A stretch of DNA of 64,000 nucleotides from Larkinella terrae (GTDB lineage Bacteria > Bacteroidota > Bacteroidia > Cytophagales > Spirosomataceae): positions 372,001-436,000 of the forward strand of contig NZ_WJXZ01000009.1 of the NCBI RefSeq assembly GCF_009668025.1, read 5' to 3'. The number at the start of each line of letters is the position of its first letter. The first letter of the stretch is position 1. A program made the translations under genes and the position numbers. A model generated the notes under the pieces. It was not told the DNA's origin. It saw only the letters and a program-made list of their open reading frames with translations, and made no database searches. Positions 1-64,000 of this stretch are shown here, in pieces.

Positions 1-188
1 CCGCCGTGGAGCAGATACAAAACCGGGTAAGACCGCTGGGAGTTTTCGTAACCGGGAGGCAGGTAAAGTGCAAACTTTTTGTCTTTTTTCAGGATGGCGC
101 TTTTGACCGTCAGGTCGTCGAACACTTTACTTTCCTGCGCAAACGCAGACAGGGAAAACAGCAGGCAAATGAGCCACAGAAATCGCAT
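1..188 (-). CDS. Secreted esterase (esterase D / CE1-like), N-terminus only
   Basis: Only the first 62 codons lie in the window; the gene runs off the left edge. The ATG is at 188-186. Residues 1-17 form a signal peptide ending SAFA before Gln18. The mature part has a strand ending in YLPPGY, then [10 protein letters not shown]. These are the first strands and the oxyanion HGG turn of the esterase D / feruloyl esterase fold, and they resemble the four esterases at 46.7-52.5 kb. The catalytic Ser and His are outside the window, so substrate and activity cannot be judged. It is divergent from the hydrolase starting at 335. Confidence 0.75.
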   Translation of the reverse strand, partial: MRFLWLICLLFSLSAFAQESKVFDDLTVKSAILKKDKKFALYLPPGYENSQRSYPVLYLLHG

Positions 189-334
189 GAACAATCGTTG
201 GATTTTGAGTTGAAACGAATAAAAAACCGCACGAATGAACGGCAAGTTAGCGGTTTATCCCGTCAGAAGTGGGTTTTTCTGCTTTTCTTTCCTATCTTAC
301 TTTTTGTTCACTGCTTTCGTAACCGAATACAACC

Positions 335-2206
335 ATGAAACTCATTTACCGGATTCTGCTGGCTCTGCTGCCAGTTTTTGTGCACGCCCAAACGCCCGAT
401 TCAACCTGGTTTCGAACGAATTATTCCAAACAGGAAATTTACATTCCGATGCGGGACGGCACGAAGCTTTTCACGTCCATTTACGCTCCGAAAGACAATG
501 CAGAAAAACACCCGGTTCTGATGTCCCGAACGCCGTATTCCTGCGCGCCCTACGGCGAAACCGCCTATCGCAATTTCTGGAGCAATCACTACCGGGAATA
601 CTTGAAAGAAGGCTACATCATGGTGGTGCAGGACGTTCGCGGCCGCTGGATGAGCGAAGGAACCTTCGAGGATGTCCGGCCTTACAATCCGGCAAAAAAG
701 GCCAAAACGGACGTCGACGAAGCCACCGACACTTACGATACCATCGACTGGCTGGTGAAAAACCTGCCGAACAACAACGGCAAGGTGGGCGTTTTCGGCA
801 TATCGTATCCCGGTTTTTATTCGACGATGGCGGCTTTGAGCAACCATCCGGCGCTGAAGGCCGTCAGTCCGCAGGCCCCGGTGACGGAATGGTTTCTCGG
901 CGACGATTTTCACCACAACGGGGCGCTGATGCTGATGGATGCGTTCAATTTCTACATCCGGCGCGGTTTTGGTATGCCCCGGCCTAAACCAACAACCGTG
1001 GGTCCGAAACCGATGGAGGTAGTCACGAAAGACAGTTACGAATTTTTCCTTCGCAACGGCACGCTGCCGAAGTTGACCACCTTTGCCGGAGATAGCGTGC
1101 GGTTCTGGAAAGAGTTGATGCAGCACCCAAACTACGACAGCTTCTGGCAATCGCGCAACGTCCGCAATTTTGTCAACAACATTTCGCCCGGAACCGCAAC
1201 CCTGGTGGTGGGCGGTCTATTCGACGCGGAGGATTGCTACGGCGCCTGGACGACGTACAAAGCCATCGAAAGCAAGGCGAAAAATACCAACAAAATCATC
1301 ATGGGACCGTGGTTTCACGGGCAGTGGGCCGGTCGTGGCAGCGACGGTTCGTCGCTCGGTAACGTGCAGTTTGGCAGCCCAACCAGTGCATGGTACGCGA
1401 CGAATGTCGAAATTCCGTTTTTCAATTTTTACCTGAAAGGCAAAGGCAGCGCCGATCCGATCAAGGAGGCAACGGTTTTTTATACCGGCGAAAATCAGTG
1501 GCACCAACTGGAAAAATGGCCCCCGGCCAACACCTCCGAAACCGCCCTGTATCTGCAACCCAAGGGCACTCTGAGCTATACAAAACCGGCTTCGGCCGGC
1601 GATTCGTTCACGGCCTACGTCAGCGATCCGGCCAAACCGGTGCCGTACGCCGAAGGGATTAAAACGCTCCGCACCCGCGAGTATATGACGGACGATCAGC
1701 GGTTTGCGGCCAATCGACCGGATGTGCTGGTGTTCGAAACCGACGTACTGACCGAAGATCTGACCCTCGCGGGGCCGCTGACCGCCGATTTGCAGGTGAG
1801 CATCAGCGGAACCGACGCCGATTTTGTGGTGAAACTGATCGATGTTTTCCCGGATGAGTTTGAATACGGCAAGGCCGACAAATACATCATGAGCGGTTAT
1901 CAGATGCTGGTGCGCGGAGAGGTAATGCGCGGACGGTTTCGGAACAGTTTCGAAAAACCGGTCGCGTTTGTTCCCGATCAGGTCACGACCGTGAAATACG
2001 CACTGCCCGACATTGCACACACGTTCAAAAAAGGCCACCGGCTGATGGTACAGATCCAAAGCAGCTGGTTTCCGCTGGTCGACCGGAATCCGCAGAAATT
2101 CGTGGATATTTACCACGCCAAAGAAGCTGATTTTCAAAAGGCAACAATCAAAATTCACCACAGCGGAAAAGCCGCCAGCCGTATTTTACTGCCGGTTTTG
2201 AAGTGA
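335..2206 (+). CDS. CocE/NonD family (peptidase S15-like) secreted hydrolase
   Basis: This is an exported alpha/beta hydrolase of 623 residues, similar in length to alpha-amino-acid ester hydrolases and glutaryl-7-ACA acylase. Residues 1-18 are a signal peptide ending VHA. The nucleophile elbow GISYPG puts the catalytic Ser near residue 157. Downstream, GGLFDAED supplies the likely Asp and GPWFHGQW the likely His. The C-terminal third is the beta-rich jelly-roll domain of X-Pro dipeptidyl peptidases. The family hydrolyses amide or ester bonds of N-acylated amino acids, and the actual substrate is unknown. The gene stands alone: an imperfect inverted repeat follows it and a peptidase gene lies 116 bp downstream. 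Confidence 0.88.
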   Translation: MKLIYRILLALLPVFVHAQTPDSTWFRTNYSKQEIYIPMRDGTKLFTSIYAPKDNAEKHPVLMSRTPYSCAPYGETAYRNFWSNHYREYLKEGYIMVVQDVRGRWMSEGTFEDVRPYNPAKKAKTDVDEATDTYDTIDWLVKNLPNNNGKVGVFGISYPGFYSTMAALSNHPALKAVSPQAPVTEWFLGDDFHHNGALMLMDAFNFYIRRGFGMPRPKPTTVGPKPMEVVTKDSYEFFLRNGTLPKLTTFAGDSVRFWKELMQHPNYDSFWQSRNVRNFVNNISPGTATLVVGGLFDAEDCYGAWTTYKAIESKAKNTNKIIMGPWFHGQWAGRGSDGSSLGNVQFGSPTSAWYATNVEIPFFNFYLKGKGSADPIKEATVFYTGENQWHQLEKWPPANTSETALYLQPKGTLSYTKPASAGDSFTAYVSDPAKPVPYAEGIKTLRTREYMTDDQRFAANRPDVLVFETDVLTEDLTLAGPLTADLQVSISGTDADFVVKLIDVFPDEFEYGKADKYIMSGYQMLVRGEVMRGRFRNSFEKPVAFVPDQVTTVKYALPDIAHTFKKGHRLMVQIQSSWFPLVDRNPQKFVDIYHAKEADFQKATIKIHHSGKAASRILLPVLK

Positions 2207-2208
2207 AA

Positions 2209-2292
2209 AACGTTTACGGTTTATGGTTCGTGGTTAAAGGTTGAGACAAATTTCTGTCCGTGAGTCACTCATAACCTGAAACCATAAACGTT
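2209..2292. repeat. Imperfect inverted repeat after the S15 hydrolase
   Basis: AACGTTTACGGTTT at 2209-2222 is the reverse complement of 2279-2292 with one mismatch in 14, separated by a 56-nt loop. It starts three bases after the stop codon at 2206, so it may act in 3-prime end formation. The word GTTTATGGTT recurs near 28675-28695. No T-run follows. Confidence 0.5.
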
Positions 2293-2322
2293 AAACTATT
2301 AAACTTTCTCAAATTGATTGAA

Positions 2323-3102
2323 ATGGCGTACGCATTAGTTTTGCTGGCCGTGTTACTGCTCGGCGGGTTGATCTGGAATTACCGGCGACGGAGCGTTGCG
2401 GTTAGCCCGCCCGCATCGGCCAGCTATAGTGATTTATTGGAGGAACACGTCGCGTATTACCGCGCGCTGAGCAATGAAGAGAAGGCGGTTTTTGAACAGC
2501 GCGTCGATCAATTCCTGTCTCACACCCGCATCGAGGGTGTTGGCACGACCGTCGATGAGCTGGACCGGGTGCTGGTAGCCAGCAGCGCCGTTATTACAAT
2601 TTTCGGGTTTAAAGATTGGTCGTTTTACCGCCTGACGACGGTTTTGCTGTACGACGACCGTTTCAATACCGACTTTGAAACGTCTGGCAAAAACCGTAAC
2701 ATCCTCGGCATGGTGGGCGAAGGCGGGGCGCTGCAAAGCACGATGGCGCTCTCCAAACCGGCACTGCACGAAGGTTTTGCGAACGAAACCAGCAAGGAAA
2801 ACACTGGTATTCACGAGTTTGTCCACCTGCTCGACAAAGCCGACGGTTCCACCGACGGCGCGCCCGAATACCTCTTGGACCGCAATCACCTTAAACCCTG
2901 GCTTCAACTGATTCACGCCAGCATCGCCGATATCCAGAAAAACCGCTCTGACATCAATCCCTACGCCACAACCAACGAAGCCGAGTTCTTCGCCGTCGTT
3001 TCCGAATACTTCTTTAAACGCCCGGATTTACTGAAGGAGAAACATCCCGAGCTGTTTGCTACGTTGGAGGAGATTTTTCAGCAGCGGCCGGGGGAAGGTT
3101 AA
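2323..3102 (+). CDS. MtfA-like zinc metallopeptidase (M90 family), membrane-anchored
   Basis: I start at the ATG at 2323; a TTG nine bases upstream is in frame. The protein has 259 residues. A transmembrane helix at about 2-20 is followed by RRR, suggesting anchoring with the catalytic part in the cytoplasm. The zinc motif HEFVH (about residues 164-168) followed by LLDKADG is diagnostic of the MtfA/M90 family, and EAEFFA further on supplies the likely third ligand. E. coli MtfA is a cytoplasmic peptidase linked to the Mlc repressor and glucose uptake; that role need not apply here, since no Mlc or PTS gene is nearby. The membrane segment is an addition relative to E. coli MtfA. Confidence 0.85.
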   Translation: MAYALVLLAVLLLGGLIWNYRRRSVAVSPPASASYSDLLEEHVAYYRALSNEEKAVFEQRVDQFLSHTRIEGVGTTVDELDRVLVASSAVITIFGFKDWSFYRLTTVLLYDDRFNTDFETSGKNRNILGMVGEGGALQSTMALSKPALHEGFANETSKENTGIHEFVHLLDKADGSTDGAPEYLLDRNHLKPWLQLIHASIADIQKNRSDINPYATTNEAEFFAVVSEYFFKRPDLLKEKHPELFATLEEIFQQRPGEG

Positions 3103-3110
3103 GAAACAGC

Positions 3111-3200
3111 TATTTCACGAAGCGGAGGAAAGCAGAGCTCAGCGGAGGTTATTTTTCTCTGCTGAACTTCGCTTTCCTCCGCTCAGCTTCGCGAAACAAC
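3111..3200. repeat. Long imperfect hairpin, GCGGAGGAAAGC family
   Basis: The left arm (about 3113-3147) and right arm (about 3157-3196) pair with few gaps around a short TTATTTTT loop. The core words are TTTCGCGAAGC and GCGGAGGAAAGC. It lies between the convergent ends of the MtfA-like gene and the HxlR gene and may terminate both. A related but distinct hairpin occurs at 31508-31589. Confidence 0.7.
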
Positions 3201-3206
3201 TAAAAA

Positions 3207-3545
3207 TCACTTGCCAATAATCTCCTTTCGGTGTGTTAGTCCCCAGAAGTGAAGTTCCTCCATTACCTTCTCCAGCGATTTGCCATGCGCCGTGATGGCG
3301 TATTCGACAGTCGGCGGATAAGTGTCATATACTTCCCGGGTGATCAGTTTGTTCTGCTCCAGGTTCTTCAATTCTTTCGAGAGCGTTTTGTCGGAAATCC
3401 CGCTGACTTCCTTCGAAATCTGCTTGAAGCGTTTGGGGCCGGACGATAACGCAAAAAGAATCAACAACTTCCAGCTTCCTTCCAGCGCTTCCAACGCATC
3501 TTTGATCGAAAGCATATTCTTAGGACACCCCTCTCCGGTCAGCAT
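3207..3545 (-). CDS. HxlR family winged-helix transcriptional regulator
   Basis: I start at the ATG at 3545 (MLTGEGCPKNML), giving 112 residues, the normal HxlR size; the open frame runs 26 codons further upstream. The signature parts are the N-terminal Cys in GCP, the helix ALEGSWKLLILFALSSGPKR, the recognition part SGISDKTLSKELKNLE and the wing YPPTVEYAITAHGKSL. Members often sense electrophiles or redox state through that Cys and repress a divergent neighbour. The divergent gene here is the DoxX protein at 3675, and a repeated CTTTCCAAC site sits on its promoter, so this regulator most likely controls it. Confidence 0.88.
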   Translation of the reverse strand: MLTGEGCPKNMLSIKDALEALEGSWKLLILFALSSGPKRFKQISKEVSGISDKTLSKELKNLEQNKLITREVYDTYPPTVEYAITAHGKSLEKVMEELHFWGLTHRKEIIGK

Positions 3546-3595
3546 ATTTTTCTGGTTCGTTTTAGTGATTCTAATGATACTAGCTCGTTGGCATC

Positions 3596-3624
3596 TGCTT
3601 TCCAACCGGAAAGTGCTTTCCAAC
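3596..3624. promoter_or_regulatory. Candidate HxlR operator (18-bp-spaced direct repeat)
   Basis: TGCTTTCCAAC occurs at 3596-3606 and again at 3614-3624, exactly 18 bp apart. The first copy also forms the small palindrome CTTTCC-AACC-GGAAAG (3598-3613). The site lies in the divergent hxlR/doxX gap and overlaps the place expected for the -33 element of the doxX promoter, which suits a repressor site. Confidence 0.5.
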
Positions 3625-3648
3625 GGACAGCGAATATAAATACTTTTG
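3617..3648 (+). promoter_or_regulatory. Bacteroidota-type promoter of the DoxX gene
   Basis: TACTTTTG at 3641-3648 matches the -7 consensus TAnnTTTG perfectly. TTTC at 3617-3620, 20 bp upstream, is one base off the -33 TTTG. Transcription would start near 3655, about 20 nt before the ATG at 3675. Confidence 0.55.
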
Positions 3649-3674
3649 GTCCGTTCTTAAAACCGGATCAACTC

Positions 3675-4085
3675 ATGACTCATTATCCAAAACCGCCAAT
3701 AGCCCTTCACATTGCTTTATGGGTTGCCCAGATTCTCATTGCCGCCAGTTTCAGCTGGGCGGCCTACCTGAAACTTTTTCAGCCAATTGCCGAGCTTTCC
3801 AGGATGTGGCCTTGGACGGCGCAAATTCCCCCTGAACTCGTGAAACTCACCGGCGTATTCGATTTTCTGGGGGCAGTTGGCATTCTTCTGCCTTCCCTGC
3901 TCCGGATCAGGCCCGGCCTGACGCCCATTACCGCCATTGCCATCGTAGTCCAGATGATCTGCGCGGGCATTTTCCATATTTCCCGGGGAGAAGCCGCCGG
4001 GATTGCACCTAATATTGTGTTTGCCCTGCTTGCGGCTTTTGTTGCCTGGGGAAGATCCAGGAAAGCACCGATTCCGGCACGATAA
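3675..4085 (+). CDS. DoxX family membrane protein
   Basis: The start is the ATG at 3675 (MTHYPKPP), placed just downstream of a good promoter; the longer open frame would run into that promoter. The protein has 136 residues with four predicted transmembrane helices. The first contains SWAAYLKLFQPIAELS, the conserved DoxX helix-1 pattern, and a later one reads DFLGAVGILLPSLLRIRPGL. DoxX-like proteins are small quinone- or thiol-associated membrane proteins of poorly defined function, often paired with HxlR or MarR regulators responding to oxidative or electrophile stress. The divergent HxlR gene fits this. Confidence 0.85.
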   Translation: MTHYPKPPIALHIALWVAQILIAASFSWAAYLKLFQPIAELSRMWPWTAQIPPELVKLTGVFDFLGAVGILLPSLLRIRPGLTPITAIAIVVQMICAGIFHISRGEAAGIAPNIVFALLAAFVAWGRSRKAPIPAR

Positions 4086-4159
4086 GCGGTTTTAGTATCC
4101 CGCGGAGAAAAGCTTTTTATGTTGCAGGGTGTTAAGGCTGTCTTCATTCTATTATGGTT

Positions 4160-4224
4160 GCCCCCAACCCCCTAAAGGGGGCTTCTGCTCCGGAGTTTCA
4201 AGCCTCCTTTAGGGGATTGGGGGC
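4160..4224. repeat. CCCCCTAAAGGGGG-family hairpin, copy 1
   Basis: GCCCCCAACCCCCTAAAGGG and on (4160-4184) pairs with 4200-4224 with few mismatches around a 15-nt loop. It lies in the convergent gap between the DoxX and M14 peptidase genes. Three further sites of the same family lie at 45474-45539, 48721-48954 and 50142-50205. Confidence 0.8.
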
Positions 4225-4281
4225 TTGGTTGAGAACCGATCCAAGTCAAGGAAACGCTTCAATTTTGATAACCTATTTTAA

Positions 4282-4329
4282 CGAAAACGGGCCGGAAATG
4301 TACCGCTTCCGCGTTCATTCCCGGCCCGT
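4282..4329 (-). terminator. Rho-independent terminator of the M14 peptidase gene
   Basis: ACGGGCCGGAAATG (4287-4300) pairs with CATTCCCGGCCCGT (4316-4329) with one mismatch. On the minus strand the stem is followed by TTTTCGTT, and it lies 24 bp past the stop codon of the gene ending at 4353. Confidence 0.65.
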
Positions 4330-4352
4330 GGGATTTATAGACCAAGTCGCTT

Positions 4353-7151
4353 TTATGGCAATGAAGTAGAATACAACTGATTGAATAACAGCTTAAACGT
4401 TCCCTGCGCCTGGGCGCGGAAGGTGATTTCCGGTCCGAAGGCGTAGAGTTTGCCGGAACCGACCGGGGCCATAAAAGCCGCCACGCCGTCCTGCAAATAG
4501 GCCTGCCCCCAGGCCCAGCCGCTGCGCAGCGGTTTGGCGGTCGAGAACCACGCCAGCGGTTTGACAATGCCTTTGGCCACCGCATCCGGCGCGATTTTAA
4601 AAACCGGGCTGGCATCAAAATAAACGTCCGTCTGGCATGATAATCCCCAGGTGGCTTGCTGGGTGGAGTCCAGATCAATGCGCAGAATACTGCCCGGAAT
4701 GTAGTATTTTTCGTTCGATAGAGGTCGCTCAATGCCCGCGCTGTTCATGTCCACCAGCGCATTTTTTACCGGCAATCCCAGGTGGTAAGCCAGGTTTGTG
4801 CTGCTGCCAATGGTGACGACGTTACCGCCCGCTTCCAGGAATTTCTTCAACTGCGGAATCGACTTGTCGGCCGTAATTTTGCCAAGCCACGGACGGTATT
4901 CGGCGGGCAATTCTTCAGCTTTGGGCTCCCGATTCGAAAAACCGCCTTCGCCCCCACCGGAACCGGAAGCGCCCACCGCCGGAATGGCCCGGGAAACAAA
5001 CACGATCACATCGAATTTCTTCCGCAAATCACCGGCGTCGATGTCCTGCGAATAGATGACCTGCATCGGGAAACGGTATTGCTCCATCAGCCAGCGAACC
5101 CAGCCCGACGGCATCGACCCGCCGTAGGCATCCCACAGCGCAATCCGCGCGGGCGACACCTTCACCAGCGCCCCCATCGGCTTTTTGCCAACGCCCGTAA
5201 TTTCCAGTCCCAACTCCTTTGCCGATTTATCCAGCAACGTTTTGGCCTTGGCCGAACCCGGAACGTAAAACGCTCCGGCTGCCAGTTTCCCGGCTGTACC
5301 CGTCGGTAACCGGTATACGTCGACGCCCGACTTCAGGAGATCGTTGACGGCAATAAATGCGTTATTGGTCTGCGCACTCAACGTGTAGCCCGCGACAGTG
5401 CCGGTTTCCATCTTGCCTTTTGGCATTTGCAACTCGCCGTAGGGCAATTTCCGGAAGGGACCGTCAAAACCGTCCAGAATCCGGTCCACTTTGACGCCCA
5501 TCTGGTAAGCCAGGGTCCAGCCAGCGGCATCGTACGGACGCACCGGCGGACCGCCCGGATACTGAAAATCGTTCGGGTGATCCTGCGGCTCGAACATGTC
5601 CAGCACGTGCGGCCGGAACGCCTGATCGGTTTTGACGACGTATGAACCCGCCGGGTATTTCTTGCCCGCTACGGTAAACTCCGCCGTGGCTTCCTGCACC
5701 TGAATACCGGTTTTGATCAACGCATTGAGGAACTTGACCGCCGTCGGGAAATCCGGCTGATCGGTCGTAATGATGTATCCGCGCGGGTCGCGCAGGGCAG
5801 GATCTTTCAAAACCGCATCGTAATATTTCACGGGAATGCCGCCCCCGCGCGGCAACAAACCGTACTGGTCGGGCGTCGTTGCCGTTCCGCTCGTCGGTGG
5901 CGTTTTCCTTAAATCGGCCTGATAATTCTGGTTGATGGCGTCAATCCGCTTCGGCGAAAGCGTCCAGTAATCCGAGCTGCCGTGCTCGATGGCGTTTTTG
6001 CCCATTCGGTAAATATTGTACAGCAACTGATCGCTGTGCCGGGCCGCGTAGTCGAGCGTAGCATAATTCAACGAAACGGAATAATCGATTGACTGCCTGA
6101 AATACCACTTCCGGGGCGTCACCGGAAAGGGCGTATTTCCGTTGGGAATCAGGCGGTTTGGCACCAGTGGCACGTCTTCCGGCGTCGGATTGCCGATAAT
6201 TTCCGTCAGCAAACCGATCATGTTGTGAAAGTGCGTAGTCGTCCGTAAACCGCCGTTGTACCAGGTCGAGAAAACCGAACCGCCCAGGCGCGTAAAACCG
6301 GGTTTGTTTTCCGCGTTCAGCCGGTTGATCATGGCCGCACCGAGCGCATCGATCCCGGTGATCATCAGCGGCTCGAACACGTAGTTGAACGGATCGCGAT
6401 ACGGCGGCCCCGCCAGCACCGAACCGGCCGGTCCGCGCTGGTGGTGGTTGTACATAACCTGCGGCAGCCATTCGATAAACAACTGACGGCCAATGTTTTG
6501 CGACTCTTTCATGTTCATGATAAAAAAGTCGCGGTTGTTGTCGTGACCGGCGTATTTCTGGTAAAGGCGCGGCACATTTTCAAGCAGGCGCTTCTCCGGT
6601 TTCGGTTCGCGCATGTACCAGCTACTGACCAGTTCCTGCCCGTCGGGGTTCGCGTGTGTGAGTAGAATGACAACGTTATCCAGAATCCGGAGCGTTTCGG
6701 GGTCTTTGCGACTCACCAGTTGCCAGGCGGTTTCGATGAGTTGCATTGTGCCAACGGTTTCGGTTGCGTGCAAACCGCCATCGATCCAGACCACCGCCTT
6801 GCCTTCAGCGGCCATTGCCTTCGCCTGCTCCTCGGTCAGGCCTTCGGCGCGGGCCATTTTGGTGGAAATTTCCTTGTACCGGTCGAGTTTTTTCAGGTTT
6901 TCGGGCGACGACACGATGATCATGTACTGGTGCCGCCCTTCCTCAGTCATCCCGATATCGACCAGTTTGGTCCGGTCCGAAGCGGCCAGTTTCTTAAAAT
7001 ACGCTTCGGTTTGGGTGTAGGTAGCAAGCTGGTAATCGTCGCCGATGTTAAACCCGAAATGGTCCTTCGGCGAAGGAATATTTTGGGCCTGAACCTGGGT
7101 CAGGCTCAGAGTCAGTAAACAAAATAAAGCGGGTAAAAAATACCTTTTCAT
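4353..7151 (-). CDS. Secreted M14 family zinc carboxypeptidase
   Basis: This 932-residue protein starts with a signal peptide (cleavage after VQAQ, about residue 23). The M14 domain occupies about 45-400. IDGGLHATE carries the His-Glu zinc pair, THANPDGQ follows, YNHHQRGP offers the third His, and TEIIGNP lies where the catalytic Glu is expected. The remaining 500 residues include a beta-rich part and a segment (VVTIGSSTNLAYHLG) reminiscent of a class I glutamine amidotransferase-like fold, typical of long Bacteroidota M14 members. It probably trims peptides in the periplasm or outside the cell. It is monocistronic, with its own terminator at 4282-4329. Confidence 0.85.
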   Translation of the reverse strand: MKRYFLPALFCLLTLSLTQVQAQNIPSPKDHFGFNIGDDYQLATYTQTEAYFKKLAASDRTKLVDIGMTEEGRHQYMIIVSSPENLKKLDRYKEISTKMARAEGLTEEQAKAMAAEGKAVVWIDGGLHATETVGTMQLIETAWQLVSRKDPETLRILDNVVILLTHANPDGQELVSSWYMREPKPEKRLLENVPRLYQKYAGHDNNRDFFIMNMKESQNIGRQLFIEWLPQVMYNHHQRGPAGSVLAGPPYRDPFNYVFEPLMITGIDALGAAMINRLNAENKPGFTRLGGSVFSTWYNGGLRTTTHFHNMIGLLTEIIGNPTPEDVPLVPNRLIPNGNTPFPVTPRKWYFRQSIDYSVSLNYATLDYAARHSDQLLYNIYRMGKNAIEHGSSDYWTLSPKRIDAINQNYQADLRKTPPTSGTATTPDQYGLLPRGGGIPVKYYDAVLKDPALRDPRGYIITTDQPDFPTAVKFLNALIKTGIQVQEATAEFTVAGKKYPAGSYVVKTDQAFRPHVLDMFEPQDHPNDFQYPGGPPVRPYDAAGWTLAYQMGVKVDRILDGFDGPFRKLPYGELQMPKGKMETGTVAGYTLSAQTNNAFIAVNDLLKSGVDVYRLPTGTAGKLAAGAFYVPGSAKAKTLLDKSAKELGLEITGVGKKPMGALVKVSPARIALWDAYGGSMPSGWVRWLMEQYRFPMQVIYSQDIDAGDLRKKFDVIVFVSRAIPAVGASGSGGGEGGFSNREPKAEELPAEYRPWLGKITADKSIPQLKKFLEAGGNVVTIGSSTNLAYHLGLPVKNALVDMNSAGIERPLSNEKYYIPGSILRIDLDSTQQATWGLSCQTDVYFDASPVFKIAPDAVAKGIVKPLAWFSTAKPLRSGWAWGQAYLQDGVAAFMAPVGSGKLYAFGPEITFRAQAQGTFKLLFNQLYSTSLP

Positions 7152-7312
7152 GGGACGGAGGTTCGTTCGTTGATAAGACGAATTAACTTATTTTTTTCTC
7201 ACAACCGTAACCCAGTCACAAAATATAATTTTACCATTTATAATGATAACCATATATTTTATTGAAAATTACAGAAATGGAACGAATACTATAAAAGATG
7301 CTGCGGAATCGC

Positions 7313-8128
7313 TTATTCAATTTTTTTCAACTCTTCCTGCCGGTCTTTCTCCAACCCGACTTTATCGAAATCCGCATGGGTGTTCAGTTCGACGGTATAA
7401 CCCTGAATTTTATCGATCTCAACCGTCAGTTCAGTCGCGGTAAAATCGAAAATATGCCCGCCGGATTTGTGATCGTTCGCGAGGTAATGAAAGTGAAAAC
7501 CGGGTACGTTGACCTTGGCGATGTAGCCTGGTAGCAAAAAACCGGCGACTACCCCATCGGTATTGCTTAAGTTGAACAGATGCTGCTGTTTCGCCAGGTG
7601 ATCTTTCAGGCTGGGGTACGGTTTTCTGGCTGCGCCAGGTGCGCGGGACGTCAGTTTTTCAAAATGGCCCTTCATCCGAATGGCGTACATTTCGTTGGCG
7701 GGCAAAACCGCCAGCAGTTTTTTCTCCAGTTCATCCAGCGTGATGTTTTTGATAATGAACGTTGAATCGGCCTTGAAAAACTTGACAAACGCAATCGACG
7801 TACTGTCCGTATCCGGCACCTCCTGAATGCTGCCATCGTACCTAATTTTGTACACGTTACCCTGATCGACAATCAGTTCGCCATCCACCCGGTTGAATGT
7901 TCCGATGCCGAAATCGCCTTTGGTTTTTAACTGGCCGAGCGTGAGGTTGCCGTCAAAAACGCCCGCCAACAGCGCGTCAATGATCGAATACTGGTACATA
8001 AAATCCGAAACCGGTGGCTTGGCGGTTTCGGCGGATTGTTTTTGGGAGCAGCCTTGGAGGAGGTATGTGGTGATCGTCAGCAAGAAACCAAGCGGTTTAC
8101 TGATTCTTAAAGGTAAATAAGTTATCAT
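7313..8128 (-). CDS. budA: Acetolactate decarboxylase, predicted lipoprotein
   Basis: The family decarboxylates (S)-2-acetolactate to (R)-acetoin. The diagnostic parts are MYQYSIIDALLAGVFDGN, GDFGIGTFNRVDGELIVD and the metal site, where His212 and His214 (in GFHFHYLAND) and His225 (SGGH) are the expected zinc ligands and Glu84 is a conserved acid. The length of 271 residues fits an ALDC of about 240 plus a leader. Unusually, residues 14-27 form a lipoprotein signal ending LLQGC, so the enzyme should sit on a membrane facing the periplasm or beyond. No acetolactate synthase is nearby. It is a single gene, bounded by a long hairpin on its 5-prime side. Confidence 0.88.
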   Translation of the reverse strand: MITYLPLRISKPLGFLLTITTYLLQGCSQKQSAETAKPPVSDFMYQYSIIDALLAGVFDGNLTLGQLKTKGDFGIGTFNRVDGELIVDQGNVYKIRYDGSIQEVPDTDSTSIAFVKFFKADSTFIIKNITLDELEKKLLAVLPANEMYAIRMKGHFEKLTSRAPGAARKPYPSLKDHLAKQQHLFNLSNTDGVVAGFLLPGYIAKVNVPGFHFHYLANDHKSGGHIFDFTATELTVEIDKIQGYTVELNTHADFDKVGLEKDRQEELKKIE

Positions 8129-8155
8129 TTACAAGAGGAGTTTAGGACTAGCACA

Positions 8156-8242
8156 CCCCGTCAGCGGTCGCAGACCCTGACGGCGGTTTAAATTTATTCA
8201 GCTTAAATTCACCGCCGTCAGGGTCTGCGACCGCTGACGGGG
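8156..8242. repeat. Perfect 32-bp inverted repeat (CCGTCAGCGGTCGCAG family)
   Basis: The 32 nt at 8156-8187, which contain CCCCGTCAGCGGTCGCAG, are exactly complementary to 8211-8242. The 23-nt loop is AT-rich and itself partly symmetric. It lies upstream of budA and downstream of the Dabb gene, both on the minus strand, so it could end the Dabb transcript. No uridine tract follows, so it differs from a simple intrinsic terminator. Confidence 0.85.
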
Positions 8243-8292
8243 TTTCCGAACTCATCGACGGCCCGGCGCTGCCGGGGTTGCGGATTGGGGTG

Positions 8293-8688
8293 TTACCGCT
8301 TGGGGCCGACGGAATCGTAGACAATCACTTTTTCCCAGAGAGACGAATATTCTTCGACAAATTTAAGGTGAATCGGATGTGTCTGGTAAAGCTCCTCATC
8401 CATCAGGTTATTGAAAAAACAGAGCCACGAAAACGTGTACGAACGCTCAATGACCGAACGTGTGGTTGGCGCGGGCGTTCCGATGTGCACCAGCTTGATT
8501 GTCGGCACTTTAGCCAGTTTGTTTAGCCCTTCGAGCAATTTGGCTTTATCGGCCTCGCTGCCCGGGTTTTTCAGGTAAAAATAAACGTGATGGACAAATA
8601 GTTCTTTCGGAGCGTTGCCCGATAAACCGAGTCCAAGCCCGGCCCCGACACCCTTTTTTACAAACTCCCGACGTGATTGTTCTTTCAT
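8293..8688 (-). CDS. Tat-exported Dabb (stress-responsive A/B barrel) domain protein
   Basis: This 131-residue protein begins with the twin-arginine motif SRREFVKKG and a glycine-rich hydrophobic stretch, so it should be folded before export. The mature part (from about residue 28) is a single Dabb ferredoxin-like barrel: an initial HHVYFYLK strand, the middle IKLVHIGTPA, and the helix with YQTHPIHLKFVEEY near the end. The family includes small dimeric proteins of mostly unknown function. Nothing in the neighbourhood gives a role. A 194-bp gap separates it from the divergent helicase gene. Confidence 0.8.
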   Translation of the reverse strand: MKEQSRREFVKKGVGAGLGLGLSGNAPKELFVHHVYFYLKNPGSEADKAKLLEGLNKLAKVPTIKLVHIGTPAPTTRSVIERSYTFSWLCFFNNLMDEELYQTHPIHLKFVEEYSSLWEKVIVYDSVGPKR

Positions 8689-8870
8689 AAAACTTTCGGT
8701 CCGCGCTGGCGGCTTCTGAGGTAATTTCGTTGGTTAAAAGACAAAAGTGGGTAAGATTCTCCGAATTAAAACCGGGCTTTTCTCTTTTCTGCAAAATACT
8801 TTCTCCAACTAAATCCGAGACATGATACAGTGCTTCCCGAAAATGAACCTTCAGGGCCGGTAATTTACCT

Positions 8871-8878
8871 TACTTTTG
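8871..8878 (+). promoter_or_regulatory. TAnnTTTG -7 box abutting the helicase start
   Basis: TACTTTTG matches the Bacteroidota -7 consensus and ends only four bases before the ATG at 8883. If it is used, the transcript would be leaderless or nearly so. No matching -33 TTTG is present about 20 bp upstream, so the call is tentative. Confidence 0.35.
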
Positions 8879-8882
8879 CGGT

Positions 8883-10211
8883 ATGGAAACCAATTTAGAT
8901 CTTTCGCCCATTCTGGCGAACCTGGGAATTGCGGCTTTAAACCCGATGCAAACCGAAGCGCGGGAAGCGATCGTTCGGGAGAAAGCCGTACTGTTGCTCG
9001 CTCCGACCGGTTCCGGGAAAACCTTGGCGTTTCTGTTACCCGTACTTCAATTGCTCAAATCGGACCAAAAAAACGTTCAGTGCCTGATCCTGGCGCCCAC
9101 CCGCGAACTGGCGTTGCAGATTGAGCACGTCTGGAAAAAAATGGGAACGGGTTACAAGGTCAACGTTTGCTACGGCGGGCATCCAATGGCAACCGAAATC
9201 CAGAATCTGAGCAATCCACCGGCGGTTTTGATCGGTACACCGGGTCGCATTGCCGATCACCTCGACCGCAACACCTTCGATCCGGGTGGCATTCACGCGC
9301 TGGTGCTCGACGAATTCGACAAATCCCTGGAACTCGGTTTTCAGGAGCAAATGGCGTTCATCATCGGCGGTTTGCGGTCGCTGAGCAAACGCGTCCTGGT
9401 TTCGGCCACTGCCGGAATTTCCATCCCGGATTTCACGGGGGTTCGTTCGCCCGTGAAACTGGATTTTATTTCCGACGATGATCGAGCTAACCTACTGACA
9501 ATCAAAGCGGTTTTTTCGGAGGAGAAAGACAAAACCAATACCCTGTTCCGGCTGATCTGTTCGCTGGATTCCGAAGCAGCGCTGATTTTTTGTAACCACC
9601 GCGATACCGCCGAGCGGACGAGTGCATTCCTGAACGAATTGGGGATTTATGCCGCTTTTTACCACGGCGGCATGGAGCAGGATGATCGCGAGCGGGCCCT
9701 GATCCAGTTCCGGAATGGCAGCATTAATTATCTCATTACGACGGATTTAGCCGCACGTGGGCTCGACATTCCCGAAATGAAATACGTCATTCACTTTCAG
9801 CTGCCGCTGCACGAACACGAGTTTCTGCACCGCAACGGCCGGACGGCCCGGATGCAAGCGTCCGGAACGGCCTATGTCCTGCTCAGCCGCGACGAAGAAC
9901 GCCCCCGGTATTTGCCCGAATCGCTCGAAGAATTCAGCATTCCGGCCAGAAAACCGCTGCCCGAACCGCCCCGTTTTCAGACCATTTACATCAGTGGCGG
10001 TCGAAAAAATAAACTCAACAAAATCGATATTGTCGGTTTTTTTTCCCAGAAAGGCGGGCTCGAAAAAGGCGATCTGGGCCTGATCGAAGTCAAGGATTTT
10101 GTCTCCTTCGCGGCCGTCCGGAAGTCGAAAGTCCCAAGCCTTCTGGCCAAAATCAAGGACGAAAAAATGAAAGGGAAAAGGTATAAGATTGAAGTAGCGA
10201 GGGGGGAATGA
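8883..10211 (+). CDS. DEAD-box ATP-dependent RNA helicase, DbpA-like
   Basis: This 442-residue helicase has all motifs: Q motif around NPMQTEA, Walker A APTGSGKT (40-47), APTRELALQ, TPGR, motif II DEFD (143-146) in place of DEAD, SAT (174-176), TDLAARGLDIP and HRNGRTAR. Residues from about 370 resemble the C-terminal RNA-binding domain of DbpA (GFFSQKGGLEKGDLGLIEV, then AAVRKSKVPSLL). In E. coli that domain binds hairpin 92 of 23S rRNA during 50S assembly, so a ribosome-assembly role is a reasonable inference. The DEFD variant keeps the acidic residues needed for ATP hydrolysis. The stop codon lies inside a perfect hairpin. Confidence 0.92.
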   Translation: METNLDLSPILANLGIAALNPMQTEAREAIVREKAVLLLAPTGSGKTLAFLLPVLQLLKSDQKNVQCLILAPTRELALQIEHVWKKMGTGYKVNVCYGGHPMATEIQNLSNPPAVLIGTPGRIADHLDRNTFDPGGIHALVLDEFDKSLELGFQEQMAFIIGGLRSLSKRVLVSATAGISIPDFTGVRSPVKLDFISDDDRANLLTIKAVFSEEKDKTNTLFRLICSLDSEAALIFCNHRDTAERTSAFLNELGIYAAFYHGGMEQDDRERALIQFRNGSINYLITTDLAARGLDIPEMKYVIHFQLPLHEHEFLHRNGRTARMQASGTAYVLLSRDEERPRYLPESLEEFSIPARKPLPEPPRFQTIYISGGRKNKLNKIDIVGFFSQKGGLEKGDLGLIEVKDFVSFAAVRKSKVPSLLAKIKDEKMKGKRYKIEVARGE

Positions 10212-10275
10212 CCATTGACGATGGACGATCGACCATTGCCAAAAGCCGATGGTCGATCGTCCATCGTCAATGGTC
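10210..10275. repeat. Perfect 27-bp inverted repeat between convergent genes
   Basis: The 27 nt at 10210-10236 (GACCATTGACGATGGACGAT and on) are exactly complementary to 10249-10275, with a 12-nt loop. It overlaps the helicase stop codon by two bases and ends five bases before the serine hydrolase stop, so it is placed to terminate both convergent transcripts. The arm itself is built of near-palindromic subwords (CCATTGACGATGG, CGATCG). Confidence 0.85.
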
Positions 10276-10280
10276 AACAA

Positions 10281-11840
10281 TCACTTTCTCCCAAACTCCA
10301 GATCGTGGAAGTCGTAGCTGAAGTCGGTCAGGGGCGAGATGGCTTTCATTTTCATGGAAACCGGTTTTCCTTCATAATCGAGCCCGAACATTACAAAGGC
10401 GTCGGCTTCCAGGCTACGGTCGTTCCATTTCACGACAAACGTATTGCCTTTGTAAAAGTATAATTCGCCCGTCAGGCGAGGAGAACGTTTGGCTGCAAAC
10501 AGAAGTCGGTCATTTTTAACGGCAATGGAAACGTCGCCAAGCCAGTTGTCGTGGTAGGTTCCGGCGTAAAAATTCAGATCCGGCTTGGCTGCGCTCTTTT
10601 GCGCTTCGACTACTTTCCTGACCTCATCTGTAACTTTATCGGCACTGGCGGTATTTTCGCGCAATCGATCGCTGTATTCCTTTACCCGGTCGGTTCCGGT
10701 GATGCCGAAATAACTGTCCTTGATCTGGTTGGTGATGGACGTAAAAGCCGCTCCGGCCTGCTGATTGGTCAGTACGATAATGCCCAGTTTAAGTTCTGGC
10801 AGCAGCGTCACCTGCGTCACCATGCCGGGCAGTCCGCCGGTGTGCGTAACCTGTTTGTACCCTTTCACATCGCTCAGTCCCCAACCCAGGCCATAAGCAC
10901 TGAAGTGCGTGTTGTACGGACCCGGATTCCGGACGGGAATGATGGTTTGGGGCGTCCACATTTCGTCCTGGACTTTGGCGCTGAACAGGGTTTTGGACAA
11001 ACCGTCGCCGTATTTTCCGCCGTTGAGTTGCATGATCACCCACTTGCTCAAGTCGTTAATACTGCTGTTGATGCCTCCGGCCGAGTTGCCTACGTCGAGC
11101 CGGCCCCGTCGTACCGTCCGCAGTTTTCCCTCAATGACGGCGTGGGCATCAATTACATTTGATTTGTCTTTCAGTCGCGAAAACGACGCGGCACTCTTTT
11201 CCATCTGCAGCGGTTTCATAATCCGGGTTTCAACAAAATCTTCCCAGCTCTGGCCCGAAGCCCGTTTGACGACCTCGCCAGCCACCATGTATAGCAGATT
11301 GTCGTAATCGTATTTGGTCCGAAAACCGGAAACCTGTTTCAGATACCGGAGGTTATGAATGACATCCTTCAGGGTGAAATCGCTGGAATCGGGAAAAAAC
11401 ATCAGGTCGCCCGCGCCCAGGCCCAAACCGCTGCGGTGAGTCAGCAGATCGCGAATGGTAAAATCCTCGGTGACGTACGAATTATACAGCCGGAATTCCG
11501 GAATGTAATCGACGACTTTATCATCCCAATTCAGCTTGCCGTCGTCGATTAGAATGCCAAGCGTGGCCGCCGTAAACGCTTTGCTGTTGGAGGCAATACC
11601 AAACAGCGTGTTGGCATCCACTTTCTCCTTCGAGTGGATCGAGCGAATCCCATAGCCTTTGGAATGAATCACCTTTCCGTCTTTAACAACGGCGACCGCA
11701 ATGCCCGGCACCTCGAAGGTTTTTAAGGTCCGTTCGACCAGCTGATCGATTTGGGCCGAGGTAATGACCTGCGCAAAAACCGGCTTACAAAGTAAGGAAG
11801 ATACGAAAAATAGAGCGACGAATAGTAACGGTGATTTCAT
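10281..11840 (-). CDS. Serine hydrolase, class C beta-lactamase fold, with C-terminal DUF3471-like domain
   Basis: The start is the ATG at 11840, which opens a good signal peptide ending VFAQ; the open frame extends 11 codons upstream. In this numbering the protein has 519 residues, with the SxxK motif SNSK at 84-87 (catalytic Ser84, Lys87). A YDN in YDYDNLLY is the YxN motif, and HTGG replaces the KTG triad. The last 110 residues (from about DLNFYAGTYHD) form a lipocalin-like DUF3471-type domain. Such proteins are usually peptidases or esterases for D-amino-acid peptides rather than resistance enzymes. It stands alone in the minus direction. Confidence 0.88.
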   Translation of the reverse strand: MKSPLLFVALFFVSSLLCKPVFAQVITSAQIDQLVERTLKTFEVPGIAVAVVKDGKVIHSKGYGIRSIHSKEKVDANTLFGIASNSKAFTAATLGILIDDGKLNWDDKVVDYIPEFRLYNSYVTEDFTIRDLLTHRSGLGLGAGDLMFFPDSSDFTLKDVIHNLRYLKQVSGFRTKYDYDNLLYMVAGEVVKRASGQSWEDFVETRIMKPLQMEKSAASFSRLKDKSNVIDAHAVIEGKLRTVRRGRLDVGNSAGGINSSINDLSKWVIMQLNGGKYGDGLSKTLFSAKVQDEMWTPQTIIPVRNPGPYNTHFSAYGLGWGLSDVKGYKQVTHTGGLPGMVTQVTLLPELKLGIIVLTNQQAGAAFTSITNQIKDSYFGITGTDRVKEYSDRLRENTASADKVTDEVRKVVEAQKSAAKPDLNFYAGTYHDNWLGDVSIAVKNDRLLFAAKRSPRLTGELYFYKGNTFVVKWNDRSLEADAFVMFGLDYEGKPVSMKMKAISPLTDFSYDFHDLEFGRK

Positions 11841-23159: not shown

Positions 23160-23259
23160 ATGGCTGGATGGCTAAATGGTTAAAAATGGATGGCTGACGC
23201 GTTCATAAGCGTGCGTCAGCCATCCATTTTTAACCGTTCAAACCATCCAACCATTTAAA
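23160..23259. repeat. Long hairpin, TAAATGGTTAAAAATGG family, copy 1
   Basis: Its core is a perfect 21-bp stem, TTAAAAATGGATGGCTGACG and C (23180-23200) with 23213-23233. Imperfect pairing extends outward to about 23160 and 23259. The loop region reads GCGTTCATAAGCGTGC. A second copy at 28728-28818 has the same flank orientation but the loop sequence inverted. It sits between the pgl stop codon and the SDR promoter. Confidence 0.85.
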
Positions 23260-27558: not shown

Positions 27559-27560
27559 TT

Positions 27561-28667: not shown

Positions 28668-28727
28668 GTGTAGTTTATGGTTTTTTGTTTATGGTTGGAG
28701 TTCCAATATTGCTGGTTGGTTCTGATG

Positions 28728-28818
28728 CTTGGATGGTGTAAATGGTTAAAAATGGTTGGCTGGCGCACGCTTATGAACGCGTGCGCCAACCATTTAGCCA
28801 TCAGAACCATCCAGCTAT
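28728..28818. repeat. Long hairpin, TAAATGGTTAAAAATGG family, copy 2
   Basis: GGATGGTGTAAATGGTTAAA and on pairs imperfectly with the stretch ending CCATCCAGC; the inner stem GGCGCACGC with GCGTGCGCC is perfect. The central 16 nt, GCACGCTTATGAACGC, are the exact reverse complement of the loop in the copy at 23160-23259. It lies between rpiB and tal, in the pentose phosphate cluster. Confidence 0.85.
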
Positions 28819-28824
28819 TAAAAC

Positions 28825-58730: not shown

Positions 58731-58744
58731 CGTTCTATCCCTGA

Positions 58745-62251: not shown

Positions 62252-62436
62252 TGGTGTTGGCGTTTTTGTCTTCAAAAAATTGCAAAATAATTCCCAGCCC
62301 CCGGTTGGAAGGGGAAAGTGTGCCTACGATAAATAGGGCCGTAAAACGGAATGAGGTCGGATAAATACCCGTTTAGAGGAGGAAAGAGAACATTTTTTCG
62401 ATCATAGGATTAGGATGGTTAAGAATGGAAATTCGA

Positions 62437-63507
62437 TTAATCACAGCTCCGGCTGTGTATAATTATCCGGTTGTCGACCAGTTCATAGGTTGACTCAATG
62501 GTCAGACAGATCAACCGGACTTTTTCAAGAAAAGGGACGTCATTCAGTTGGCCGGTGAACGTGCAATTCTTTAATGAGTCCCGTTCATATTGAATCGGCA
62601 TGTGGTAACCCGCTTCCAGTTGATCAAAAATTTCCGTTACCGGTTTATAATTAAACGCATAGTGTTGCGCGACAGGGAAGAATGCGGGTTCTTCGGCCAA
62701 CAGGTTTTTCCGCTTCACGACTTGTCTGGAATGTCCACTAATGTTAAGTTCTTCATTCACCGTCAGCAAAACCGGTTTTTCCGGTGCTTTAGCAGTCATA
62801 ACCATTACTTTGCCCGTTTTCACTTTGACAAATGCGGTTTTCTCCTGATCGAATGAACGCACCAGGAAACTGGTTCCCAATACCTTGGTAGTCAGATTGT
62901 GGGTGTAGACAACGAACGGCCGGTCCGGATTTTTAGTTACTTCAAAAAAGCCTTCTCCTTCCAGATAAACTTCCCGCAATCCTGCGTCCATCTGTTTCCG
63001 AAACCGCAATTGACTCCCTGACGACAGCAAGACCGATGAATGATCCGGCAGGAAAACGACCCTGCTCTGATTGGTTGTATTCTTCACCAGTTTCCAGCTT
63101 ACTGCCCGCGTTGCTTGCTCTTCGACGGTTCGGTTTATCGTAGCTGGCAGAAAAATGGTTTTGCCGAACTGCCACCAAACCAGCAGACCTACGACGGCTG
63201 CTGCCGACAGCCATTGCCCCCACACCCTGGGAATTTGGAGCCTGCGCGCGGGAGAAGCAGGCAGTTGATCCAGAATTTCGGCGGTTTTTTCCCGTATTTC
63301 TTTCTGCGTAACGTCAACCCTTTTTCCCTGGATCACCCAAAAGGTCGCCACGGCTTCCTCATAGATTTCTCTCCGTTCGGGATGCAGCGCTAACCAGGTT
63401 TGCCAAAGGACTTGATCTTCCGGTCGTCGTTCCGTGACCCAGATCCGGAAAGCCTGATTTCCCAGGAAATCGTCAACGCTCGAAAGAGTTTCATCCGGAA
63501 GCTCCAT
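62437..63507 (-). CDS. FecR family anti-sigma factor
   Basis: This 356-residue protein has a cytoplasmic N-terminal part with VTERRPEDQVLWQTWLALHP, a transmembrane helix at about 98-113 (QWLSAAAVVGLLVWWQF), a FecR domain (VVFLPDHSSVLLSSGSQLRF, then FFEVTKNPDRPFVV) and a C-terminal segment (VTEIFDQLEAGYHMPI) for the STN contact. It is the partner of the ECF sigma factor 73 bp upstream. The 185-bp gap to susC has no gene; TTATTTTG on the minus strand near 62283-62290 is one base off the -7 box. Confidence 0.93.
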   Translation of the reverse strand: MELPDETLSSVDDFLGNQAFRIWVTERRPEDQVLWQTWLALHPERREIYEEAVATFWVIQGKRVDVTQKEIREKTAEILDQLPASPARRLQIPRVWGQWLSAAAVVGLLVWWQFGKTIFLPATINRTVEEQATRAVSWKLVKNTTNQSRVVFLPDHSSVLLSSGSQLRFRKQMDAGLREVYLEGEGFFEVTKNPDRPFVVYTHNLTTKVLGTSFLVRSFDQEKTAFVKVKTGKVMVMTAKAPEKPVLLTVNEELNISGHSRQVVKRKNLLAEEPAFFPVAQHYAFNYKPVTEIFDQLEAGYHMPIQYERDSLKNCTFTGQLNDVPFLEKVRLICLTIESTYELVDNRIIIHSRSCD

Positions 63508-63580
63508 TGGTACTTTTCGCTTAATAGTATTGATAGTATGAAGAATGCACCCAACGATACCCTTCTGAAAGGAAATTTTT

Positions 63581-64000
63581 TTAAAAAATAATACAACTCA
63601 GGTAGGCCAGTGGGACCAGCCACCGGGTACGTAGCTTGGTGAGTGCCTTTTGCAGAAAATTAGAAACAGATTGCCGATTAACTTGCATCGTTTCGGCAAT
63701 CTCGGGAATGGACAAATTCTCGTAGTAGCGAAGATATAAGGCTTCCCGTTCGCGGGCTGGTAAGGCAGCCAACTGGGCCTGTATGGTTTTGGTCAGGCTA
63801 GCGAACGATTCCTGATGAATCAATACTGTTTCGGAATCAACATCTTCCAGAATGGTAGTATCCCAATCCAGTTCTTCAAAAGCCAGCCGTTTCTGCACCC
63901 GAACATGCTGCAGGATGTGGTGCCGGAGGGCTTTTAATAAATAATGTTTAACCGACTCGGTTTCATTGATTTGCAGGCGGTTTTGCCAGAGTTGCAGGAA
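63581..64000 (-). CDS. ECF RNA polymerase sigma factor, C-terminal part
   Basis: The gene begins beyond the right edge; 139 codons are visible. From the edge the frame reads FLQLWQNRLQINETESVKHY (end of region 2), a linker, then region 4 (ALPAREREALYLRYYENLSIPEIAETMQVNRQSVSNFLQKAL). The tail ends WLVPLAYLSCIIF, again strongly hydrophobic as in the sigma at 34047-34658. With FecR directly downstream it should control the xylan locus. Confidence 0.9.
   Translation of the reverse strand, partial: FLQLWQNRLQINETESVKHYLLKALRHHILQHVRVQKRLAFEELDWDTTILEDVDSETVLIHQESFASLTKTIQAQLAALPAREREALYLRYYENLSIPEIAETMQVNRQSVSNFLQKALTKLRTRWLVPLAYLSCIIF

What the first reader, a model, noticed from the sequence alone, without database searches (positions are those of the whole stretch)
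1..64000. Strong over-representation of the heptamer AAAACCG / CGGTTTT across the window
Counting by eye, I find about 34 occurrences (both strands) in 1-10400 and about 21 in 23251-33250. A random heptamer is expected about 1.3 times per 10 kb on both strands. It occurs in both orientations, inside genes in at least two reading frames (GGT TTT and CGG TTT/ GTT TTG splits) and in gaps, so codon choice alone does not explain it. The base after AAAACCG is mostly G or C. It could be an uptake sequence, a Chi-like recombination signal, a site of a DNA-binding architectural protein or a mutational bias. I know of no such motif described for this group.
Basis: partly seen in the sequence, partly recalled or inferred. 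Interest (0 to 1): 0.72.

Follow-up and report, generated by a model that had tools for sequence, protein, structure and literature searches.

The report
Genus-wide repeated seven-letter DNA word
Bacteria of one genus (Larkinella) carry the same seven-letter DNA word thousands of times per genome (18,454 times in this one), and evolution keeps each copy somewhat better than chance would, which points to an unknown protein or process that reads this word all along the chromosome.

Summary
Codon use does not explain it: all six gene-strand/frame classes are enriched (3.0-4.2 fold overall over synonymous shuffles), and intergenic density equals coding density. Within the family it marks the genus: 9 of 9 Larkinella have 0.78-2.4 per kb, the other 191 genomes at most 0.63. 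Replication polarity is absent. Between species the word leaves a conservation footprint of exactly seven bases. In three 92%-identical species 60% of sites are shared by all, against 35.5% for controls (0 of 631 as high). Losses are about halved at all positions and gains raised about 1.4-1.5 fold relative to controls, a fixation bias 2Ns near 0.8-1.1; one polarised test was weaker (0.36). Codon use and a simple mutational hot spot fail; Chi is unsupported; uptake is weakened. Best reading: sites of an abundant, unidentified Larkinella chromosome protein. That factor is inferred, not shown.

The parts
1..64000 (.). 157 dispersed copies of AAAACCG (78 on +, 79 on -): 131 wholly inside genes called here, in all six strand/frame classes (23, 12, 24 on the gene strand; 4, 36, 32 opposite), 26 between genes or across gene ends
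   Evidence: gene calls from a simple codon-score caller
1..10400 (.). denser stretch, 34 copies
23251..33250 (.). stretch with 21 copies

Best explanation
AAAACCG (wider preference roughly [ACG]AAAACCG[CG][CT]) is a Larkinella-specific DNA signal, spread over the chromosome in both orientations and kept by a weak, site-autonomous fixation bias of about 2Ns = 1: changes that break a site are fixed at about half the rate seen for control words, and changes that make one at about 1.4-1.5 times. That much is measured. Inferred: the bias exists because an abundant sequence-specific chromosome-binding protein of this genus (nucleoid-type or DNA-maintenance) prefers this word and each bound site adds a tiny independent benefit, which in time enriched the word about three-fold beyond what proteins, codon use and codon-boundary bases demand.
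For: Not codon-driven, equal density in and between genes. Marks the genus within the family: 9 of 9 Larkinella 0.78-2.38/kb, highest of 191 others 0.63/kb. Footprint of exactly seven bases between own genome and L. rosea, flanks slightly below expectation. L. humicola against C7: divergence 0.50 of expectation in genes, 0.41 between genes, flanks 1.05 and 1.04. 60.0% of 435 sites shared by three species against 35.5% for pooled control words, 0 of 631 as high; between genes 25 of 42 against 29.1%. Most conserved of 1394 heptamers. Relative loss 0.52 [0.44-0.61] and gain 1.52 [1.16-1.89] in own/L. rosea; 0.60 [0.50-0.71] and 1.39 [1.00-1.84] in the trio, S 0.82 [0.46-1.16], loss lowered at all seven positions. 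e^S of 2.3-2.9 is near the strictest codon-aware enrichment of 3.0. Retention does not depend on distance to the next copy. No strand polarity.
Against: No binding protein was found; HU is single-copy in Larkinella and most relatives. With a distant outgroup the humicola/C7 pair gives only S 0.36 [0.01-0.67]; 43 of 600 controls had as low a loss and 230 as high a gain. The intergenic part of own/L. rosea showed no protection (22 losses against 16.7 expected), though the closer trio did (15 against 34.1); intergenic gains were not raised there (4 against 7.9, controls 0.51). A simple equilibrium model of the trio suggests a mild net loss of sites (92 in two of three where 75.7 are predicted, z 2.5). 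Single control words can be as conserved in one pair (minimum 0.46). An exchange-driven bias would leave the same footprint.
Confidence: 0.42

Rival explanations
1. Uptake or recombination drive: Larkinella takes up or recombines DNA carrying AAAACCG preferentially, so copies spread by molecular drive, as with the DUS/USS of Neisseriaceae and Pasteurellaceae, with a shorter and looser motif.
For: State-favouring gains and losses at all positions, no polarity, graded one-off forms, lower density in DNA not aligned to L. rosea or L. humicola (1.83 against 2.41/kb), ComEC present in all 9 Larkinella.
Against: No clear type IV pilus/type II secretion ATPase (PF00437): Larkinella gave only short 20-26-bit fragments, two of them just over the cut-off, while two order members score 417 bits (37 of the 40-59 first-look candidates per Larkinella genome were scored). 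ComEC does not set the genus apart (38 of 39 genomes). The first mismatch costs 5.7 fold (19.0 to 3.3) against 92 and 82 fold for uptake words (PMC1939737, passage). Retention does not depend on a nearby second copy.
Confidence: 0.2
2. Mutation or repair effect without benefit: the word is shielded from mutation (for example by bound protein) or favoured by a context-dependent mutation or repair process.
For: Losses are reduced; the gain excess has a lower confidence limit of 1.00 in the trio and is absent (1.07 [0.76-1.40]).
Against: Reduced loss alone would give about 1.7-1.9 fold (arithmetic), below 3.0. Gains were raised 1.52 fold [1.16-1.89]. All seven positions are affected, which a single hot-spot reaction does not predict.
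Confidence: 0.18
3. HIP1-like mechanism: a DNA methyltransferase and mismatch repair create and keep the word, as proposed for the cyanobacterial HIP sequences.
For: Same kind of genome-wide iteration and genus-level presence (class described in PMC4390886).
Against: Not palindromic. Of two methyltransferase families tested, PF01555 has no match in 2 of 9 Larkinella, this genome included, and PF00145 none in 5 of 9. Other methyltransferase families were not searched.
Confidence: 0.08
4. Polar recombination or segregation signal (Chi, KOPS).
For: Short, non-palindromic, very frequent word.
Against: Leading 389, lagging 420 on 360 kb of C22; leading 221, lagging 207 in 20 pieces round the G001 contig (summed).
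Confidence: 0.04
5. Codon, amino-acid or terminator by-product.
For: Frame classes differ in enrichment (1.8-8.4 fold); density about doubles in the 50 bp after stop codons.
Against: All six frame classes and intergenic DNA are enriched with proteins and codon use held fixed. The excess after stop codons is roughly 100 of 3200 sites (my estimate).
Confidence: 0.02

Closest known systems
HIP1 (GCGATCGC) and alternate HIPs of cyanobacteria
   Same: Short word iterated genome-wide about once per 0.4-1.3 kb here, in and between genes, clade-wide with varying frequency; function unsettled (PMC4390886, abstract and sections read).
   Different: Here 7 bp and not palindromic, in Bacteroidota; no shared methyltransferase among the two families tested; less specific enrichment.
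DNA uptake sequences (DUS of Neisseriaceae, USS of Pasteurellaceae)
   Same: Dense, both orientations, one-off forms also enriched, state-favouring spread.
   Different: Shorter word, first mismatch costs 5.7 fold instead of 92 or 82 fold (PMC1939737); no clear pilus ATPase; uptake untested.
Chi sites (RecBCD/AddAB)
   Same: Over-represented short non-palindromic word.
   Different: No replication-strand bias; strand bias of Chi is recalled, not looked up.
Preferred sites of sequence-specific nucleoid proteins (recalled class)
   Same: Works like it: A-tract beside a GC step, many independent sites on both strands, some positions tolerant.
   Different: No binding protein is known here, and I recall no nucleoid protein whose site is enriched genome-wide in this way.

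Membership tests
HIP1-type highly iterated palindrome | Palindromic word | tested here: not met
   AAAACCG is not its own reverse complement (seen directly)
HIP1-type highly iterated palindrome | Matching DNA methyltransferase in the genomes that have the word | tested here: inconclusive
   PF01555 and PF00145 are not shared by all 9 Larkinella; other families not searched, methylation unknown
HIP1-type highly iterated palindrome | Genome-wide over-representation in and between genes | tested here: met
DNA uptake sequence (DUS/USS) | Steep loss of over-representation with the first mismatch | tested here: not met
   5.7 fold against 92 and 82 fold (PMC1939737)
DNA uptake sequence (DUS/USS) | Type IV pilus-type uptake machinery | tested here: not met
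   no clear PF00437 match in 9 Larkinella, only short fragments, two marginally over the cut-off in G008 and G004; 37 candidates scored per genome. ComEC present
DNA uptake sequence (DUS/USS) | Preferential uptake of DNA with the word | not testable with these tools
   needs an uptake assay
Chi site | Orientation bias with replication | tested here: not met
   389:420 and 221:207 leading:lagging
Chi site | Stimulates recombination by RecBCD/AddAB | not testable with these tools
   enzyme assay needed; the genes were not searched
KOPS-type segregation signal | Polarity towards the terminus | tested here: not met
   same counts as for Chi
Site of a sequence-specific chromosome protein | Many sites retained independently of each other | tested here: met
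   retention 0.73-0.80 in five classes of distance to the next copy, 346 sites
Site of a sequence-specific chromosome protein | A protein that binds the word | not testable with these tools
   HU (PF00216) is single-copy in all 9 Larkinella and most relatives and does not discriminate

The most novel reading that the evidence does not exclude
Larkinella has its own genome-wide self-mark: a 7-bp word spread and maintained by a state-favouring process, either a new sequence-specific chromosome protein or DNA exchange, by a route without type IV pili, that prefers the word. To my knowledge (and in the searches named) it would be the first highly iterated genomic word described in Bacteroidota, with its gains and losses measured.
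Probability: 0.3. Interest if true: 0.82.

Novelty: new variant of a known kind. Interest (0 to 1): 0.55.

Why it matters
Highly iterated genomic words (HIP1, uptake sequences, Chi) are hard to explain because selection, drive and mutation are confounded. Here three species at 92% identity and a pair at 83% allow gains and losses of such a word to be measured in genes and between genes, and the measured fixation bias (2Ns about 0.8-1.1 in two of three analyses) predicts most of the enrichment by itself. The genus boundary within the family should let the responsible factor be found by comparing Larkinella with Spirosoma and other close genera. If a binding protein exists, it would be a new sequence-specific chromosome organiser in a phylum where few are known (recalled).

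Tried and rejected
Codon and amino-acid explanation: rejected by three synonymous shuffles. Chi/KOPS polarity: no strand bias. Fixed spacing or helical phasing: CV 0.98 over 1058 intervals, a deficit under 20 bp (27 against 47), no 10-11 bp signal. Terminators: about two-fold excess in the first 50 bp after stop codons, a few per cent of sites. HU, ComEC and two methyltransferase families as genus markers: none discriminates. Strong net decay of the motif, suggested by outgroup polarisation (170 losses against 63 gains, 173 against 42): not upheld by the outgroup-free count (92 sites in two of three, 82 in one of three); I attribute the difference to parsimony with a distant outgroup, but a mild net loss is not excluded. 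The reversed-word control is unreliable across the phylum: some low-density genomes reach ratios above 6, so I rely on densities and on Markov and codon models. Sampled O/E in other genera rests on at most 20 kb per genome (two reach 2.6-2.8 on 9-12 sites: G010, G022). One fetched outgroup piece held no readable letters and gave no counts. In one search blocks with intermediate alignment were left out of the core/accessory comparison. The 110-kb alignment, used, was later replaced by 293 kb.

Papers: PMC4390886: abstract and outline, introduction, section 2.6, first of two parts of section 3.4. PMC1939737: abstract and outline, 12 passages. All others: search listings only.
Full report
What was checked. 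The window is G000:C22:372001-436000 of a 7.85-Mb genome with 9069 + 9385 copies, against 1444 + 1465 of the word read backwards. A scan of named genomes with a helicase of the window (80 best of 208 loci kept) found five Larkinella first (84-87% protein identity), then Spirosoma and Emticicia at 70-73%. With the genus grouping of the genome collection this makes the genome a Larkinella. Contig lengths identify G008 as L. rosea, G006 as L. punicea, G003 as L. humicola, G002 as Larkinella sp. C7 and G005 as L. knui.

Size of the excess. In 464 kb of the own genome O/E is 19.0, 5.6, 3.1, 2.7, 1.55 and 1.08 for Markov orders 0 to 5. The order-5 value is uninformative because the hexamers AAACCG (2068 copies, 3.8 fold over dinucleotides) and AAAACC carry the signal. 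With proteins and codon usage fixed by shuffling synonymous codons (pooled over genes, within each gene, or keeping neighbouring bases; 15 shuffles each), 899 sites in predicted genes compare with 213.5, 232.8 and 299.7. Each of the six strand/frame classes is enriched, 1.8 to 8.4 fold. The reversed word gives 0.94-1.22. Intergenic density is 2.33/kb (152 in 65.3 kb), genic 2.25/kb. Gene calls come from a simple codon-score caller of my own, not from a published annotation.

Shape of the word. Outside the seven bases there is little information: T is rare before; C or G is favoured and A rare after; then C or T is favoured and G rare. One-off forms are graded: AATACCG 4.1, CAAACCG 3.1, GAAACCG 2.8, TAAACCG 2.6, ATAACCG and AAAGCCG 2.4, AAAACTG 1.9, AAAACCA 1.8, AAATCCG 1.7 fold over dinucleotides, the rest 0.6-1.3. 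By mismatch load O/E0 is 19.0, 3.3, 1.7, 1.2 for 0 to 3 mismatches, much shallower than the 92- and 82-fold first drops given for uptake words (PMC1939737, passage).

Where it lies. Spacing is close to Poisson (CV 0.98, 1058 intervals; 27 against 47 expected under 20 bp) and orientation pairs are nearly even. There is no 10-11 bp phasing; pairs CGGTTTT..AAAACCG are mildly in excess at 30-120 bp, unexplained. There is no replication polarity: 389 leading against 420 lagging on 360 kb with a GC-skew switch, and 221 against 207 in 20 pieces round the single contig of G001 (summing). Density is 2.41/kb (740 in 306.5 kb) in blocks aligned to L. rosea or L. humicola and 1.83/kb (165 in 90 kb) in unaligned blocks. 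There is no promoter peak, and about a two-fold peak in the first 50 bp after stop codons.

Who has it. In the family scan (200 genomes, 36 genera) all 9 Larkinella have 0.78-2.38 per kb; the highest of the other 191 has 0.63 per kb (G471, 4012 in 6.4 Mb). In the phylum sample the highest of the 295 other genomes has 0.77 per kb (G044), about the level of the sparsest Larkinella, G007; whether such genomes are enriched for their composition was not tested. Sampled O/E1: L. rosea 6.0, own 5.6, L. humicola 5.3, L. punicea 5.2, L. knui 4.7, G007 4.2, G004 3.7, G001 3.0; the word ranks first of all heptamers in the first five, but 25th, 12th and 7th in G007, G004 (20 kb each) and G001. In one search Spirosoma has 1.7 (5 species, 98 kb), Emticicia 1.5, Runella 0.95.

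How it evolves. Own against L. rosea (83% identical): conservation is raised at the seven motif positions (z 1.7 to 4.2) and the flanks are slightly below expectation (z -4.3). By full conservation AAAACCG ranks first of the 120 commonest heptamers against L. rosea (182 of 270 kept, 0.307 expected) and L. humicola (72 of 154, 0.195 expected); by summed positions it ranks first and second. L. humicola against C7 (92%): divergence is 0.50 of expectation in genes (n=598) and 0.41 between genes (n=70), flanks 1.05 and 1.04; 150 control words pool at 0.81 (sd 0.14, minimum 0.46) in genes and 0.87 (sd 0.35, minimum 0.07) between genes, so single controls can be as low. Counted without outgroup in L. 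humicola, C7 and L. punicea, 261 of 435 sites are in all three, 92 in two, 82 in one: 60.0% shared against 35.5% for 700 pooled control words chosen in L. rosea, 0 of the 631 with at least 60 sites as high. Between genes it is 25 of 42 against 29.1%. Among the 1394 heptamers with at least 60 sites it is the most conserved, ahead of two that contain ATGAAA.

Rates. Losses and gains were compared with rates for the same trinucleotide and codon phase, then with control words. Own/L. rosea with outgroups: loss 170 against 355.5, gain 63 against 62.5; relative to 543 controls loss is 0.52 [0.44-0.61] and gain 1.52 [1.16-1.89]; 0 of 543 had as low a loss, 12 as high a gain. Trio with majority ancestors: loss 138 against 252.1, gain 53 against 50.7; relative loss 0.60 [0.50-0.71], gain 1.39 [1.00-1.84], S = 0.82 [0.46-1.16]; of 600 controls 6 had as low a loss, 44 as high a gain, 1 both; loss by position 0.35-0.69; between genes loss 15 against 34.1 (controls 0.84) and gain 4 against 7.9 (controls 0.51).

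Results that weaken this. With a distant outgroup the humicola/C7 pair gives loss 0.74 [0.64-0.86], gain 1.07 [0.76-1.40], S 0.36 [0.01-0.67]; of 600 controls 43 had as low a loss, 230 as high a gain, 17 both. The intergenic part of own/L. rosea showed 22 losses against 16.7 expected. A star-tree equilibrium model fitted to the trio predicts 75.7 sites in two of three where 92 are seen (z 2.5); control words also deviate in that direction (observed ratio 0.63, predicted 0.58), but a mild net loss of the motif is not excluded.

Reading of the rates. A fixation bias S predicts an e^S-fold excess: 2.3 for S = 0.82 and 2.9 for S = 1.07, near the 3.0 of the strictest codon-aware test. Reduced loss alone would give about 1.7-1.9. 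A process that favours the motif as a state therefore fits better than a mutation hot spot or shielding alone. This step is inference.

What reads it. Retention does not depend on the distance to the next copy (0.73-0.80 in five classes, 346 sites), so each copy seems to count for itself. HU (PF00216) is single-copy in all 9 Larkinella; 7 of 30 relatives have a second match. ComEC (PF03772) is single-copy in all but one of 39 genomes. PF01555 methyltransferases are missing in 2 of 9 Larkinella, this genome included, and PF00145 in 5 of 9. The type IV pilus/type II secretion ATPase family gave no clear match in Larkinella, only fragments of at most 56 of 370 positions, two marginally over the cut-off; 37 of 40-59 candidates per Larkinella genome were scored. 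I rank an unidentified sequence-specific chromosome protein first, an uptake or recombination drive second, mutation or shielding third, a HIP1-like mechanism fourth. None of these agents was seen.

Literature. Ten searches of the open-access library listed no paper on this motif; lists were capped where hits were many. Two papers hold AAAACCG as a word, on unrelated subjects by their titles. Subscription papers and preprints are not held. Chi, uptake sequences and HIP1 are the classes of over-represented words named in PMC4390886 (introduction).

Verdict. It is a new variant of the known kind 'highly iterated genomic word', confined to Larkinella within its family, with measurable maintenance and an unknown reader.

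Noticed in passing
window 1-64000 (no copy) and all sampled Larkinella DNA (L001-L018, L021-L050, L061-L080, L101-L120, L201-L220): The asymmetric hexamer CGCCKC (CGCCGC, CGCCTC) is almost absent: 6 copies in 2.22 Mb of five Larkinella, while the other one-mismatch forms occur 321-3022 times each. Whole genomes: CGCCGC 22 times in G000 (about 7000 expected by scaling) and 7-121 times in the other Larkinella; also rare in G010 (8) and G012 (11); 0 in 98 kb of Spirosoma where 46-60 are expected. Looks like the target of a cutting or otherwise very harmful activity shared by a wider clade than AAAACCG; may deserve a study of its own.
   Followed up: partly
window 8155-8243 and 10209-10276: Two near-perfect intergenic hairpins (stems of about 33 and 30 bp) that belong to dispersed repeat families: the 7.7-kb query around them had 72 matches in the own genome (both strands counted), most of them to these two hairpins among those listed. 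REP/MITE-like.
   Followed up: partly
L128, L130, L136 (Emticicia): The tetramer GCGC is absent from 64 kb of three Emticicia loci (about 69 expected).
   Followed up: no
G000:C22 about 200-240 kb (L011-L012): GC skew turns from positive to negative near 220 kb, as at a replication terminus or an inversion.
   Followed up: no
Larkinella sequences pooled (L001-L050, L101-L120, window): Pairs CGGTTTT..AAAACCG are mildly in excess at 30-120 bp and AAAACCG..CGGTTTT mostly in deficit at 20-70 bp; unexplained.
   Followed up: no
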